From: Synechococcus sp. NOUM97013
Lineage (GTDB): Bacteria; Cyanobacteriota; Cyanobacteriia; PCC-6307; Cyanobiaceae
DNA: 64,000 bases
NCBI RefSeq assembly: GCF_014279815.1
Contig: NZ_CP047941.1
Span: forward strand, 1,054,001 to 1,118,000
Direction: 5' to 3'
In this document: positions 12,700 to 18,362 of the stretch, in pieces
Numbering within the stretch: the first letter of the stretch is position 1
How the letters are laid out: every line of letters starts with the position of its first letter
Made by a program: the position numbers and the translations under genes
Notes under the pieces: model-generated
The model's input: only the letters and a program-made list of their open reading frames with translations
Database searches by the model: none
What the model was told of the DNA's origin: nothing

Positions 12700-12879
12700 T
12701 CAGATCGCCAGGGATCCCTCAACGGGTGACTCGATCGTCGAAGGCGGTGTTGTGTCTTTCCAGAGAAAGGGGCGGTCCTGATCGGAGCCGGGACGAAACA
12801 GAAACGCCATGCCGATCACCAGCACGATGGTCAAGGCGATCACCGCCAGAACAACTCTGTCGGGTAGCGGCTCATTCAT
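12700..12879 (-). CDS. Small single-pass membrane protein
   Basis: A 59-residue frame. An N-terminal acidic patch (MNEPLPD) is followed by a hydrophobic helix at 9-29 (VVLAVIALTIVLVIGMAFLF) and a polar tail with Pro and acidic residues. Its ATG overlaps the msrA stop (ATGA at 12876-12879), which supports it as a translated, coupled gene. Family not recognised. Confidence 0.6.
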   Translation of the reverse strand: MNEPLPDRVVLAVIALTIVLVIGMAFLFRPGSDQDRPFLWKDTTPPSTIESPVEGSLAI

Positions 12880-13598
12880 GCCTGCAGCTGAATCGGACGG
12901 TTGTCACCACGCAGGATGCAGTGGCTGATGCTCCAGTCGTAGTGCGACCACACCTGGCGAGGCAGTCGGTACTGCGCTCCTGGAAATTCTCCCAGCGCCA
13001 GTCCGGTGGGCATGGCAGAGCAGTAGGGCCTGCTGCCGGGACGGGCCAGGTACTGCTGGTGGTAGGCCTCAGCGAAATAGAAGGTGCGGTCTGCAGCAAT
13101 TTCAGTGGTGATGGTCCCCTTGCCGGCTTCCGACAACTGGCGTTGATAGGAGTCACGGCTGGCAAGGGCCAACTCCATCTGACGGGCGTTGGTGGTGTAC
13201 ACCGCTGAACGGTATTGACTGCCCTGGTCGTTGCCTTGGCGGTCTCCTTGGGTGGGGTCGTGGCATTCCCAGAACAGCTTGAGCAGATCACTCACATCGA
13301 TGGCTGGTGCGCTCCAGACGACACGGACGACCTCGGTGTGACCTGTTCTGCCACTGCAGACCTGCTCGTAGGAGGGAGTTTCGCTCTGCCCCCCCGCATA
13401 GCCCACAGCTGTTGAGACGACTCCGGGCAGTCGCCAGAAACCTTTTTCAGCACCCCAGAAGCATCCACAACCAAAGATTATTTCCTCTTGGTCGTCCATC
13501 AAGGGTGCGTGGAGAGGAGTGCCTAGAACCACGTGGCGGGCTTCGGCGTTGTTGTTCTGTTGACCTTGCTGAGAACCCGTCAGCCAGTTGGGCAGCAT
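12876..13598 (-). CDS. msrA: Peptide methionine-(S)-S-oxide reductase
   Basis: Reduces Met-S-sulfoxide in proteins and free Met, using thioredoxin. The catalytic C46 is in the GCFWG motif (FGCGCFWGAEKGFW); GYAGG and the YHQQYL region near the C-terminus are present. At 240 residues it is slightly longer than the minimal enzyme because of a 40-residue N-terminal extension of low conservation; translation may start at M34 instead. It is followed, with a 4-base overlap, by a small membrane protein gene. Confidence 0.94.
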   Translation of the reverse strand: MLPNWLTGSQQGQQNNNAEARHVVLGTPLHAPLMDDQEEIIFGCGCFWGAEKGFWRLPGVVSTAVGYAGGQSETPSYEQVCSGRTGHTEVVRVVWSAPAIDVSDLLKLFWECHDPTQGDRQGNDQGSQYRSAVYTTNARQMELALASRDSYQRQLSEAGKGTITTEIAADRTFYFAEAYHQQYLARPGSRPYCSAMPTGLALGEFPGAQYRLPRQVWSHYDWSISHCILRGDNRPIQLQA

Positions 13599-13940
13599 GG
13601 GATTGATGTCGCGATTGCAACCCTAGGCAGATGTCTGGGGATCCAGGCGGATGTGATCCAGCAGTATTTCGCCCACCGAACTCCCCTAACTGACCGCAGC
13701 AACGAGATGGATGCGTTGTGCGCGGGTTCGGCTAGTACAGGAAATAACGCAACTTTCAAAGAAATCCTTGAGAAAATGCCTGGCAGGTTCTGCTCCAATC
13801 GGTTTTTTATCGGCAGATCTGCTTCCCGGCATCCCCATCATTCCATCCGTGAATGTGGACGGTTTTGGTTGCTTTGCTAGAGGCTGAGATATCGCGTTCC
13901 TGATAGGGGCCAATACTTGGTTGTAGTTCCATGACCTCCA
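13599..13940. other. Gene-free stretch upstream of msrA
   Basis: No convincing coding frame on either strand. Short open frames exist but have no recognisable composition or ribosome binding site. The msrA promoter is presumably at its left end. It is the start of a lower-GC, gene-poor zone that continues to about 16.3 kb. Confidence 0.5.
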
Positions 13941-14149
13941 ATGTCAGAAGAGCAACTCAAAGCCTTTCTAGAATTGGTTAAATCTGATGTACGAGCCTTC
14001 AGGAAAAGCTCATAGCATCAGTCTTCCCTGACGCTGTGATTGATATCGCCAAAGAAACAGGGTTCCTTGTGGAGAGAGGAGCTGCAGGGTGCGGCGGCGG
14101 ACGGATACGGGTGGTTAGCGAGGTGTCACGATTGATGAGATTACAGTGA
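13941..14149 (+). pseudogene. Frameshifted Nif11-type leader peptide (prochlorosin-like precursor relic)
   Basis: The first 16 codons read MSEEQLKAFLELVKSD, the canonical start of Nif11-family leader peptides of RiPP precursors such as prochlorosins. This frame then stops early. Shifting by one base at about 13990-13994 restores the family continuation LQEKLIASVFPDAVIDIAKETGF. After that the usual acidic leader end is missing and the frame runs through GAAGCGGGRI to a stop at 14147-14149. One frameshift plus a probable internal deletion make this a decayed gene. No LanM-type synthetase, peptidase or transporter for it is in the window. Confidence 0.8.
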
Positions 14150-14627
14150 GACGAAACTTACGCCTTCAAACTCCTGCGTTTTGGTAGGTGATTTTCATTG
14201 TCTCAAAAGTCTGACCAACTCTATTAATCAGCCCTCAATGCCTGGTGCCATTGCTAACAAAAAATCACTCAGCCTGTCGTCAAATTAATCCATAAAAAAA
14301 TAAAACACTGTAAGTATAGTCTCACTCTTCTTTGGCGCTACATCTACTTACGGTCCCTCGACGCACTGGCTAAATACTTGCTCGCTTGCGCTACCGCTGA
14401 CAATTTTTGCTTATCATTTGCAAAGAGTTTTAGGAAGCAAAAGGCGGAACATCTTGGGTTGACGGTTCTGGATTGTCCTGTTGCATGGCCTTGTGCCTTC
14501 TGCCTGTCTGCCAATGAAGATCGGCTTGTTCATGTAATGGCGGAGACGCGCCGAATGGGCAAATGCGGATATAGTTGCCAGAAGATTTGCTCCAAAGCTA
14601 AAGTTTGAATGAATTCTAGTTGCTAAT
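14150..14627. other. AT-richer gene-free stretch
   Basis: No supported gene. There is an A-rich patch at about 14291-14306 and one open frame at 14378-14608 with improbable composition. It separates the Nif11 relic from the FG-GAP protein and probably contains the promoter of the latter. Confidence 0.5.
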
Positions 14628-15908
14628 ATGGATATCTCTTCGCCAAGTTTATGGGATAGTAATGTATTTTCTGATCCGCCAGCTAGGCCAAATTATTTCA
14701 CAGATATTCACCCATTTGGTGGCGATAATGTGCTGACTAGTCTTGCAAAAGACTACATATACGATATTTTCCAGTTAACTCCGATCAAGTCAGATAATGG
14801 ATCTCATTCTACTAATGAATTTGATATCGTTTCTGATGAGACAGTAGAGTCTGATGGAAAAGATGACATCATTATCGGTACAGGCATTGGTAATCCGACG
14901 GGACCGTTAGTGCGCGTCATTGATCCAGTTACAGGTGCTGACAGATTCAATCCCTTTTTTGCGTTCGAGCCAAGCTTCAACGGTGGTGTTCGGGTGTATG
15001 GCGCGGACGTCACCGGTGACGGCGAGCCTGACATCATTACTGCTCCAGGACCGGGTCGACCGGGTGAAGTCAGGGTCTGGGAGCTCATCGACGATAGAGC
15101 TGTTGAAAACATTGCTTATAATTTCTTCCCGTTTGGAGCAGATTACACCAGTGGCTTAGAAATCTCAGTGGGATCGATTACAGCTGCCGGAAAAATTGAA
15201 ATTGCTGCAGCTCAAAGTTTTGGAGGGCTTGTCAGCATCTTTGGAGTGTCATCGACTGCTGCTAACCCTAGTCTGCTAGGAAGCGCTTTCAGTGGTGACA
15301 CCGACTGGGAAACGGGATTTGTCAGGCCAAGACCGCTTAGACAATTGCGACCTTTTGGATCTACGTACCTTGGCGGCGTAACAATTGAGACGGCTGATGT
15401 CGGCACTTTGAGTGGAAGCAATGTGTCATCAGTCAATCCCGATGGCATCATGGAGCTTTTCTTGGGAAGCGGCTTCGGTATTCAGGCTCAGGTGAGGGGA
15501 TACAACGGAACGACAGCTGGACCGACGCTCTTCAATTCATTCAATGTGATTCGAACTGGATATAATCGGGGCGTATCAGTCGCTCGTCTGCCATCGAGCA
15601 CAGCAAATGCAGCTGATCGAATTCTTGTGTCAAGTGGTTTCGATGGAAACTCGCTGGTTGAAATTTATAACGGAAGAAATTCCACACGTGATAATAGTTT
15701 CCTTGCGTATGCTGGTAGCCGAGCAGAAGTGCTTAGTGCCGCGATTGATGACGATTTAATATTTAACGTACAGGGTTTGCTCGGAAAACAAGGTGGTGTG
15801 CAAAATGCGTTCTTACCATCTGATGAATCGCAATTCACGGTCACTCGCCCGTTGCCTCAGTCAAGAGTGATCTCTCCACCACTGCAGATTGCTATTCAGA
15901 GAAATTAA
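14628..15908 (+). CDS. FG-GAP-like beta-propeller repeat protein, orphan
   Basis: A 426-residue protein. After an 80-residue unmatched N-terminus come about four degenerate repeats of the type phi-F-x-F-(5-7)-GGV-x-V-x-x-ADV-x-GDG-x-x-D-I-I-x-x-GxGx-x-V-x-V: DDIIIGTG at 79-86, FFAFEPSFNGGVRVYGADV with the calcium-loop-like DVTGDGEPD at 127-135, FFPFGADYTSGLEI at about 166-179, RPFGSTYLGGVTIETADV at about 241-258, and FNSFNVIRTGYNRGVSV at about 302-318. Such repeats form calcium-stabilised beta-propellers in secreted or surface proteins. I see no Sec signal peptide, so export would need type I secretion or an unnoticed signal; intracellular location is also possible. GC is lower than in neighbouring genes, suggesting transfer. 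Confidence 0.7.
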   Translation: MDISSPSLWDSNVFSDPPARPNYFTDIHPFGGDNVLTSLAKDYIYDIFQLTPIKSDNGSHSTNEFDIVSDETVESDGKDDIIIGTGIGNPTGPLVRVIDPVTGADRFNPFFAFEPSFNGGVRVYGADVTGDGEPDIITAPGPGRPGEVRVWELIDDRAVENIAYNFFPFGADYTSGLEISVGSITAAGKIEIAAAQSFGGLVSIFGVSSTAANPSLLGSAFSGDTDWETGFVRPRPLRQLRPFGSTYLGGVTIETADVGTLSGSNVSSVNPDGIMELFLGSGFGIQAQVRGYNGTTAGPTLFNSFNVIRTGYNRGVSVARLPSSTANAADRILVSSGFDGNSLVEIYNGRNSTRDNSFLAYAGSRAEVLSAAIDDDLIFNVQGLLGKQGGVQNAFLPSDESQFTVTRPLPQSRVISPPLQIAIQRN

Positions 15909-16292
15909 GGCTGAAATCATTTCTTACTGGAATTTTTTTCATGCGCTCAAGCTAGGTTTTGTCACCGATGGACGTTGATGCGTGAAGTTCTATCTCTCGG
16001 TCGCTGAGAAATGGTGCACGCCGCTTGCTCAGTTCACCGCTGCCACCATGATCCGCAGCCAGCGAGCTTTTTATTAGCCAGCAATCTTGAATCCCGATTG
16101 ACAGAAACTCCATGGGGTGAGACACGACTGATGGCGAGAAAGCCATCGGCGACGATGACATACCATTTTTTTGATCGCTTCCCTGCATTTCGGATCAATC
16201 TGTAGGCGCCGCTTAGCTTCCACCGATGTTCATCAGCTTCGTTTGTTGGTTGATCTATTCTCAGTAAATCAACCAGCAGTAATGATCGGTAA
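15909..16292. other. Gene-free stretch after FG-GAP gene
   Basis: No supported gene. Open frames on both strands (for example 15952-16188 on the minus strand) have no recognisable content. This marks the right edge of the gene-poor zone. Confidence 0.45.
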
Positions 16293-16538
16293 TCAGTTGG
16301 CGGGGTCGAAGCGAATGTGATTGAGCAGGGTGGTCACGAATGCGAACAGCAGAAACGGCAGGCTGAGCACCAGAATCAGGCCCACGCCGACGAGCGCGAA
16401 CAGCGGACGCGATGAGCCCATCAGGGCCAGTCCTGCGGCCAGGCTGACGAAGATCACAGCCATCCAGGCCAGGATCTGACCGTAGATGTCACCGAAGGTG
16501 AGGGTGCAGCGAACTGTGAACGGGGTGCCTGACGTCAT
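16293..16538 (-). CDS. Small hypothetical two-helix membrane protein
   Basis: An 81-residue protein. After a polar N-terminus (MTSGTPFTVRCTLTFGDIYG) there are two hydrophobic helices at about 23-41 (ILAWMAVIFVSLAAGLALM) and 47-70 (LFALVGVGLILVLSLPFLLF), then a short polar tail. The start at 16538 is preferred to an upstream in-frame start because it gives a usual N-terminus. Located downstream of the ABC exporter on the same strand, 72 bases away. Confidence 0.65.
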   Translation of the reverse strand: MTSGTPFTVRCTLTFGDIYGQILAWMAVIFVSLAAGLALMGSSRPLFALVGVGLILVLSLPFLLFAFVTTLLNHIRFDPAN

Positions 16539-16610: not shown

Positions 16611-18362
16611 TCAGGCAACTGACTCCAGCCGTTCTGCAGCCTGTTCCCGCTCCCAGAGACTGCGGTACAGGCCCGGTTGTTGGATCAATTCAGCGTGATG
16701 ACCCTGCTGGACCAAACGTCCTTGATCCAACACAAGGATCCGGTCACAGGCCGCGGCAGCCGAAAGCTGATGACTGATCATCACGATCGTTCGGTTGGTC
16801 TGACGGCGAACCGAGGCCAAGATTTCAGCAGCAGTGTTGTTGTCCACGCTGGCAAGGGCGTCATCAAGCACTAACACCGGGGATTTGAGCAGGAGAGCTC
16901 GTCCCAAAGCCGTGCGTTGGCGTTGACCACCGCTCAAGGTGATGCCTCGTTCACCCACGAGGGTGTTCATGCCATCAGGGAAACCGCGGACGTCACCCAG
17001 CAAACGCGCCTGTTCCGCTGCCGCTTCAACACGTTCCATCGATGCGTCGGGTTCCCCGTAGCGAAGGTTGTCGGCAAGGCTGCTGGTGAACAGATATCCC
17101 TCCTGTGGAACCAGAGCGATTTGATCGCGCAGATCATTCAGTCGCAAGCGGGTGAGGTCGTGACGATCTAGAAATAATTGACCTTCCGGAACGTCGACCA
17201 TGCGGCCAAGGGCTCGGGCCAGGGTGGTCTTGCCACAGCCCACAGGTCCAACGACGGCAACCAGTTCTCCCGATCGAATCTTGAAGCTGAGACCGTTCAA
17301 TGTGTCCGTTTCACTGCCGTCGTAGCGGATGTGCAGATTGCGCGCCTCAAGGTCACCCCGCACAGGAAGTTCCAGCAGTTCCGGATCGCGCGGGTTGCGG
17401 ATCATCGGGCGACGGGAGAGCAGTTCTTCAACCCGCTCGAGGCTCACCTGGCCGGTCTGCAGGGTGTTGAGGGTGAATCCGAGCAGAGCCGTTGGGATGA
17501 CCAGAAGCTGCACGTAAAGAATCAGAGCCACAAGGCTTCCGATCGACAGCGTGTTCTGCTGAAGCTGGACACTGCCGAGGGCTAGCACCAGCAGAACGGA
17601 AATCGAAGAAATCCCTTCCAGCAGCGGGAATAACGTGCTGCGCGTCCGTGCCAGCTGGATGGCAGCATCCCGATAACTGCGGTTGCGTTGGTTGAACGCT
17701 TCCAGTTCCTGTTGTTCTTGGCTGTAAATCTTGATAGCAGCGATGCCGGAGAGATCTTCCTGGATCAGTTCGCTGAGCCCAGCTAAAGCCTCCTGTTGAC
17801 GGCGCTGCTGGCGCATCATCCTCCCGCCAAACAGGCGCACGGCTCCCAGCATCACTGGGTATGGCGCGATCGCAGCCAGCGTGAGGCCAAGATCGATCCT
17901 CAGCATGGCTGGCAGCGTGAAGGAATAGGCCAGGGCGGTGTTCGTGAGGCTGAGAACGGCGAAGCCCAGCAGCCTGCGCACGTTCTCCACGTCGCTCGTG
18001 GCACGGCTGATCACTTCGCCACTGCCTGTCTGTTGAACCCATCCGGGCTCCTGCTGCAGCATGTGATCGAACAGCTTCTGACGCAGTTCGACCTCCACCT
18101 GTCGCCCGACACCGAAGACCAGCTGCCGGGAGATCAAACGCACCACCCCCATGGTGGTGGCCAGCAGCACAATCCAGCCGGCCTGAGCCAACACGTCCCT
18201 GTAGGCGAAGCCTTCCTGCAGGTCATCAATGACCCCTTTCACTTCGAGAGGGATGGTCACACTGAGGATGTTGACCACCACCAGCGCGATCGCGCCGAGC
18301 ATCACCTTGCGTCGGTGAGGCTTCAGATACCGGCCGATCAGATCGAGGCGAAAGGCGGCCAT
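16611..18362 (-). CDS. ABC transporter, fused permease-ATPase (MsbA-like exporter half)
   Basis: A 583-residue type IV exporter half-transporter that would act as a homodimer in the membrane. The N-terminal six-helix domain spans about 20-320. The ATPase domain has Walker A GPVGCGKTT at about 371-379, an ABC signature LSGGQRQR at about 475 and Walker B VLVLDDALASVD at about 494-505. The Gly-Lys-Thr and Asp-Asp pairs differ slightly from the canonical DE: the residue after the Walker B aspartate is D instead of the catalytic glutamate, which often means reduced ATPase turnover or heterodimer use. Substrate unknown; lipid, drug or peptide export are all possible. Confidence 0.88.
   Translation of the reverse strand: MAAFRLDLIGRYLKPHRRKVMLGAIALVVVNILSVTIPLEVKGVIDDLQEGFAYRDVLAQAGWIVLLATTMGVVRLISRQLVFGVGRQVEVELRQKLFDHMLQQEPGWVQQTGSGEVISRATSDVENVRRLLGFAVLSLTNTALAYSFTLPAMLRIDLGLTLAAIAPYPVMLGAVRLFGGRMMRQQRRQQEALAGLSELIQEDLSGIAAIKIYSQEQQELEAFNQRNRSYRDAAIQLARTRSTLFPLLEGISSISVLLVLALGSVQLQQNTLSIGSLVALILYVQLLVIPTALLGFTLNTLQTGQVSLERVEELLSRRPMIRNPRDPELLELPVRGDLEARNLHIRYDGSETDTLNGLSFKIRSGELVAVVGPVGCGKTTLARALGRMVDVPEGQLFLDRHDLTRLRLNDLRDQIALVPQEGYLFTSSLADNLRYGEPDASMERVEAAAEQARLLGDVRGFPDGMNTLVGERGITLSGGQRQRTALGRALLLKSPVLVLDDALASVDNNTAAEILASVRRQTNRTIVMISHQLSAAAACDRILVLDQGRLVQQGHHAELIQQPGLYRSLWEREQAAERLESVA

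What the first reader, a model, noticed from the sequence alone, without database searches (positions are those of the whole stretch)
13941..14149. Decayed Nif11-type RiPP leader peptide gene
The translation starts exactly like prochlorosin/Nif11 leaders (MSEEQLKAFLELVKSD), and after a one-base shift continues with the family block LQEKLIASVFPDAVIDIAKETGF. A frameshift and loss of the leader's acidic end plus core suggest a recently lost lantipeptide precursor. It means the lineage carried, or still carries, Nif11 precursors elsewhere.
Basis: partly seen in the sequence, partly recalled or inferred. Interest (0 to 1): 0.65.

Follow-up and report, generated by a model that had tools for sequence, protein, structure and literature searches.

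The report
Broken cyanobacterial lanthipeptide precursor gene
A marine cyanobacterium that still carries many genes for small cyclic peptides has here one worn-out copy of such a precursor gene, stranded in a short strain-specific DNA insertion; this is ordinary gene decay in a fast-changing gene family.

Summary
Window 13941-14149 is a decayed prochlorosin-type (Nif11-leader) precursor gene. Block one (MSEEQLKAFLELVKSD) is followed by a net +2-nt shift, then block two (LQEKLIASVFPDAVIDIAKETGF). In either remaining frame the tail lacks Cys together with Ser/Thr, so no lanthionine ring is possible. The gene's 3' element (14159-14254) is present with a weak hairpin. Elsewhere the genome has 27 Nif11 matches, two open LanM genes and a C39-peptidase exporter. 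The pseudogene lies in a 2.67-kb, low-GC insertion found only in this genome, between msrA and its usual neighbours; 27 of 27 congeners with both genes have the short arrangement. The insertion's ends share an imperfect ~27-bp copy of the target. It also holds an intact FG-GAP-like gene, found in one of 30 other congeners, where it lies near a precursor array. Several lesions make a sequencing error unlikely. This is an ordinary dead member of a known, fast-turning family.

The parts
13919..13940 (+). 22 nt before the ATG conserved with intact precursor genes
   Evidence: DNA match of the best hits starts at query position 20; alignment
13941..14015 (+). ORF remnant 1: MSEEQLKAFLELVKSDVRAFRKSS, stop TAG 14013-14015; residues 1-16 are leader block 1
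   Evidence: TIGR03798 22.7 bits
13989..13996 (+). lesion 1: 8 nt where 9 of 9 aligned intact genes have 6 (net +2 nt)
   Evidence: coordinates
13997..14065 (+). leader block 2 in the shifted frame: LQEKLIASVFPDAVIDIAKETGF
14066..14075 (+). lesion 2: 26-47 nt of the leader's middle missing here, depending on the relative, if 14076-14103 is the leader end
   Evidence: (8 alignments shown)
14076..14103 (+). probable surviving leader end (EELQGAA, 1-nt gap, GG)
   Evidence: best DNA score 30, reached by 1 of 200 shuffles; mean score over 62 genes 19.5 against 15.1 (sd 0.66), reached by 0 of 200; 5 of the 12 frame-aware alignments shown agree, 7 place it in the leader's middle instead
14104..14149 (+). 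core-region remnant; frame of block 2 gives RIRVVSEVSRLMRLQ, stop 14147-14149; ATG frame gives DGYGWLARCHD, stop 14133-14135; neither has Cys plus Ser/Thr
   Evidence: translation
14159..14254 (+). 3' element shared with other precursor genes, with a weak hairpin at 14173-14188
13665..16301 (.). strain-specific insertion between msrA and its usual neighbours (GC 47% against 57-60% beside it)
13638..13664 (.). left copy of the ~27-bp target sequence (3' end of the small gene, LLDHIRLDP)
16302..16328 (.). right copy of the ~27-bp target sequence, inside the small gene
14628..15908 (+). intact 426-aa FG-GAP-like gene carried in the insertion; DNA 14448-16008 82% identical to G004
   Evidence: FG-GAP 21.2 bits, just below its cut-off 22.1
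16074..16180 (.). fragment similar to DNA just after a Nif11 gene in congener G024
12876..13598 (-). msrA (peptide methionine sulfoxide reductase), left neighbour
   Evidence: PF01625 193 bits
16293..16595 (-). small conserved gene; end changed by the insertion (FDPAN; LDPQTSA in G004, LDPMTSA in four others)
   Evidence: no Pfam match
16611..18362 (-). ABC transporter, right neighbour

Best explanation
This is a dead copy of a prochlorosin-type precursor gene (procA/syncA kind). An intact ancestor would have encoded a Nif11 leader ending in EEL.GAAGG, then a short core. A LanM would modify it and a C39-peptidase exporter would cut it after the GG; that pathway is inferred from the family and was not shown here. 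The copy, with its own upstream and 3' elements, lies with an FG-GAP-like gene in a 2.67-kb insertion between msrA and the small gene/ABC transporter. It lost function through a +2-nt shift, probably a 26-47-nt deletion in the leader and a 1-nt gap at the GG, and further substitutions. From its start at most a 24-residue peptide could be translated today. The route of insertion is unknown.
For: Profile and DNA matches. Alignments place the lesions. 27 Nif11 matches in the genome, at least five of which also look damaged by my reading (L007 internal TAA; L023, L025, L026, L027 truncated or interrupted). Two LanM above cut-off (749 and 474 bits, cut-off 304), the first directly behind an ABC exporter with a C39 peptidase domain. 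Gap between msrA and ABC 3015 bp here, 326-357 bp in 27 of 27 congeners with both genes. FG-GAP-like protein in 1 of 30 other congeners (81%), about 5-18 kb from precursor genes of that genome's array. Four residues never seen in 60 intact leaders.
Against: The frame-aware alignments are split: the two best (score 141) and 7 of the 12 shown set EELQ against the leader's middle (AEDIQ), with one frame change and no large deletion; 5 of 12 (best 138) set it at the leader end. DNA alignments favour the end. The gene is broken in either case. The leader blocks score no worse than the weakest intact leaders (6 of 60 lower). The third-codon share of differences is lower than among intact genes (57 of 110 against 654 of 999), but the 110 come from five overlapping comparisons of 21-23 differences each and no test was made. 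The hairpin count in the region equals the shuffle mean (1 against 1.0). The exporter and its partner are below the NCBIfam equivalog cut-offs. No syntenic ortholog exists, so an intact ancestor at this site cannot be shown; FG-GAP gene and precursor are not adjacent in the same way in G004, so joint arrival is inference. 254 bp at the left of the insertion match nothing in 30 congeners.
Confidence: 0.9

Rival explanations
1. Sequencing or assembly error in an intact precursor gene.
For: The frame change at 13989-13996 alone could be an error, and the leader blocks are well preserved.
Against: A second frame change under either alignment, probably a 26-47-nt deletion and a gap at the GG, no ring-capable core and four unseen residues do not come from one error. 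The assembly is one contig, rated 100% complete. Reads were not available.
Confidence: 0.02
2. The remnant is kept for a new use: the 24-residue truncated leader is made and competes for the leader site of LanM or acts as a small regulator.
For: The start, 22 nt upstream and residues 1-16 are well preserved; LanM is present in the genome.
Against: No ortholog at this site in congeners, so selection cannot be tested. Position 12 holds a residue seen in 0 of 60 leaders. No sigma-70-like site was found upstream of it; the one hit of the scan lies downstream, and the scan covers one promoter type only.
Confidence: 0.03
3. Chance resemblance, not a Nif11 gene.
For: Each block is below the curated cut-off when scored alone.
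Against: Two collinear blocks with E 1.7e-9, DNA similarity at 3e-31 that includes bases upstream of the ATG, and a shared 3' element.
Confidence: 0.005

Closest known systems
Prochlorosin / synechococsin precursors (ProcA/SyncA; NCBIfam TIGR03798, Pfam PF07862)
   Same: Leader blocks, probable leader end, 5' and 3' flanking elements; lies away from lanM, as the family can (PMC10783134, passages seen)
   Different: Reading frame broken, part of the leader missing, no core able to form a ring
Other damaged Nif11 genes of the same genome (L007, L023, L025, L026, L027)
   Same: Nif11 leaders with stops or truncations, by my reading
   Different: Different lesions; these five are still found by the PF07862 profile at E <= 0.001, this one is not
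TnpA_REP-associated lanthipeptide genes (Laurenceau et al., preprint; title seen only in the reference list of PMC10783134)
   Same: Precursor genes dispersed in picocyanobacterial genomes, here with a repeated 3' element; whether that element is the repeat of the preprint is unknown to me
   Different: No PF01797 transposase in this genome or in G004

Membership tests
Nif11-leader RiPP precursor (TIGR03798 / PF07862) | Leader similarity over the family profile | tested here: met
   22.7 and 13.0 bits in two collinear frames, each alone below the curated 32.3; E 1.7e-9 by tblastn over both
Nif11-leader RiPP precursor (TIGR03798 / PF07862) | One open reading frame from leader to core | tested here: not met
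   Stop TAG at 14013-14015; frame changes at 13989-13996 and again at about 14066-14078
Nif11-leader RiPP precursor (TIGR03798 / PF07862) | Leader end with double glycine before the core | tested here: inconclusive
   Remnant at 14076-14103 above shuffles at DNA level, with a 1-nt gap at the GG; frame-aware protein alignments split 5 to 7
Prochlorosin (class II lanthipeptide) | Core with Cys and Ser/Thr | tested here: not met
   RIRVVSEVSRLMRLQ has no Cys; DGYGWLARCHD has no Ser/Thr
Prochlorosin (class II lanthipeptide) | A class II LanM in the genome | tested here: met
   TIGR03897 749 and 474 bits, cut-off 304
Prochlorosin (class II lanthipeptide) | That LanM is of the ProcM group | not tested
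   no tree was made
Prochlorosin (class II lanthipeptide) | Peptide is made and modified | not testable with these tools
   needs expression data
TnpA_REP-mobilised unit | Y1 transposase (PF01797) in the genome | tested here: not met
   0 matches in G000; 8 of 31 genomes of the genus have it

The most novel reading that the evidence does not exclude
Precursor units move with neighbouring genes as small islands that duplicate about 27 bp of target. Here such an island cut msrA off from its conserved neighbours and altered the end of another gene, so lanthipeptide turnover remodels housekeeping loci.
Probability: 0.2. Interest if true: 0.4.

Novelty: new member of a known kind. Interest (0 to 1): 0.17.

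Why it matters
It is one worked example of birth and death in the prochlorosin family: a precursor unit present at a site that is empty in 27 of 27 congeners with both flanking genes, broken by indels, while the genome keeps open LanM genes and many other precursors. The result is modest and illustrative, not a new mechanism.

Tried and rejected
A second Nif11 remnant elsewhere in the window was sought by tblastn with 62 precursors; the 15 best rows printed all lie at this site.

Led nowhere or went against the reading: the insertion matches no phage or plasmid record. The FG-GAP protein found no relative in genome contigs (only close relatives are found that way). The 254 bp at the left of the insertion match nothing in 30 congeners. 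The promoter and terminator scan gave counts no higher than shuffles. The ~27-bp repeat was not tested against shuffles. A generality test on another precursor region (L116) showed one intact precursor (L004) inside a block shared with G004 and one damaged one (L027) in a stretch not shared with G004, so precursors do not always sit in strain-specific insertions. The preprint on TnpA_REP is not held.

Full report
Setting. The window is positions 1054001-1118000 of a 2.55-Mb, single-contig genome. Its nearest named relatives, by an ABC transporter in the window, are marine Synechococcus (e.g. AG-673-F03, 90%). The organism's own name was not given by any search.

Observation. From ATG 13941 the frame reads MSEEQLKAFLELVKSDVRAFRKSS and stops at 14013-14015. 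The next frame reads LQEKLIASVFPDAVIDIAKETGF and runs on to a stop at 14147-14149. The first 16 residues score 22.7 bits and the second block 13.0 bits against TIGR03798; each is below the curated cut-off of 32.3 alone, but they are collinear, profile positions 1-16 and 20-42. Pfam Nif11 sees only the first block, 21.8 bits against a cut-off of 23.8. tblastn of 62 precursors joins the two blocks at E 1.7e-9. DNA 13919-14064 matches an intact precursor gene of G004 at E 3.1e-31 and 80% identity; 20 of 60 genomes, the own one among them, have a match. This is beyond chance.

Anatomy. Intact genes have 6 nt between the codons for D16 and L19; here there are 8 (13989-13996), a net gain of 2 nt against 9 of 9 intact genes aligned (these 9 were chosen from the 62). 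After the F codon (ending 14065) only 10 nt remain before GAGGAGCTGCAGGGTGCGGC, where the relatives shown have 36-57 nt before the same stretch: a deletion of 26-47 nt depending on the relative. The stretch 14076-14103 then looks like the leader end: its best DNA score against 62 intact genes is 30, reached by 1 of 200 dinucleotide shuffles, and its mean over the 62 is 19.5 against 15.1 (sd 0.66), reached by none of 200; all 8 alignments shown put it at the leader end, most with a 1-nt gap at the double glycine. The multiple alignment agrees. Against this, frame-aware protein alignments are split: the two best (score 141) and 7 of the 12 shown set EELQ against AEDIQ in the leader's middle, with a frame change at 14072-14075 and no large deletion; 5 of 12, from score 138 down, set it at the leader end. 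I prefer the leader end but hold it as probable. The gene is broken under both. The tail reads RIRVVSEVSRLMRLQ in one frame and DGYGWLARCHD in the other; neither holds Cys together with Ser or Thr, which a lanthionine needs (family knowledge). From 14159 the DNA matches the element that follows other precursor genes. In an array of G004 that element begins with CCCCTGCATTGACAGGGG and a T run; here only a 5-pair stem is seen, and one such hit is what shuffles give (1 against a mean of 1.0).

Decay. In the two leader blocks four residues (L12, I24, F28, T39) occur in none of 60 intact leaders; 6 of the 60 score lower on the leave-one-out profile, so the blocks themselves are within the range of intact ones (two of 62 leaders were dropped by an alignment filter). 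The nearest intact gene is 82% identical, against a median nearest-neighbour identity of 88% among the 62; 11 of those are lower. Of differences to the five nearest genes 57 of 110 fall in third codon positions, against 654 of 999 among intact genes and their nearest neighbours. The five comparisons overlap and hold 21-23 differences each; no test was made, and I take this as weak support for relaxed selection only. The copy is neither very recent nor ancient.

The genome's other parts. PF07862 has 27 matches in the genome, 24 over the cut-off, none of which is this site. By eye at least five carry stops or truncations (L007, L023, L025, L026, L027). Two LanM genes are open and above the cut-off (749 and 474 bits, cut-off 304). 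The first follows two ABC transporters that match the NHLP export families below their equivalog cut-offs; one has a C39 peptidase domain (108.8 bits).

Insertion. In 27 of 27 other genomes of the genus with both genes, msrA and the ABC transporter lie 326-357 bp apart; here they lie 3015 bp apart. and searched 31 genomes; G002, G015 and G016, at 63-73% completeness, lack both orthologs, and in G022 the ABC gene is cut by the contig end. Of 26 named loci, 20 were searched for msrA; 16 have it, with gaps of 131-504 bp by the coordinates (some are the same genomes as G handles, e.g. L129 and G003 by coordinates). Of seven congeners aligned, five match both flanks; the match stops at 13664-13665 and resumes at 16302-16303. 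In these five, 26-27 bp of the target are matched by both ends. The left copy still reads LLDHIRLDPQTSA, the old end of the small gene; the right copy reads LLNHIRFDPAN. The two copies differ from each other, so the insertion is not fresh, or the repeat reflects how a break was repaired; it was not tested against shuffles. The insert has 47% GC against 57-60% beside it. It holds the pseudogene; an intact 426-aa FG-GAP-like gene (Pfam score just below cut-off) found in 1 of 30 other congeners, G004 (81%), about 5-18 kb from precursor genes there; a fragment like DNA just after a Nif11 gene in G024; and 254 bp without a match in 30 congeners. ABC transporter, small gene and msrA run in one direction; co-transcription is inferred from gene order.

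Route. A title in the reference list of PMC10783134 links lanthipeptide genes to TnpA_REP transposases (the preprint is not held). It is found in neither this genome nor G004. So this transposase is not present to explain the insertion now. The same paper says that precursor genes can be scattered in the genome and that insertions and deletions diversify the core (passages seen). The words decay, truncated, frameshift, non-functional and remnant and pseudogene do not occur in its main text. The listings of searches showed no paper whose title concerns such pseudogenes; this is a weak test, as the key papers of subscription journals and preprints are not held.

Verdict. A dead precursor of a known family in a strain-specific insertion. 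The find is real, well explained and of low surprise.

Noticed in passing
14159-14254 and downstream of other Nif11 genes (e.g. in L119, L120, L121, L123, L112): A repeated 3' element (terminator-like hairpin plus about 60 nt ending near TCAATCAGCCTTCAATACCTGGCACCATCGC) follows precursor genes in several congeners. A stretch at L116:10924-11048, which shares 32 nt of it, matches about 30 listed places in G017 (capped list).
   Followed up: partly
14628-15908: FG-GAP-like 426-aa gene in the insertion, present in 1 of 30 other congeners (G004); no relative found in genome contigs.
   Followed up: partly
16293-16301: The insertion replaces the last residues of a conserved small gene (LDPQTSA in G004 to FDPAN here).
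   Followed up: partly
L020/L022 (G000:C1:500461-500940): One open frame of 199 aa with two Nif11 matches and no double-glycine end, unlike a precursor.
   Followed up: no
L118:8606-11803: A second LanM (474 bits), far from the first; its substrates are unknown.
   Followed up: no
L006 (G000) and L119 (G004), minus strands: Precursors of two genomes share an almost identical 36-residue core (C.RGTRDTHLARGCGPLDQCQRTALDGGTTTQWWCN) on diverged leaders, unusual for such variable cores.
   Followed up: no
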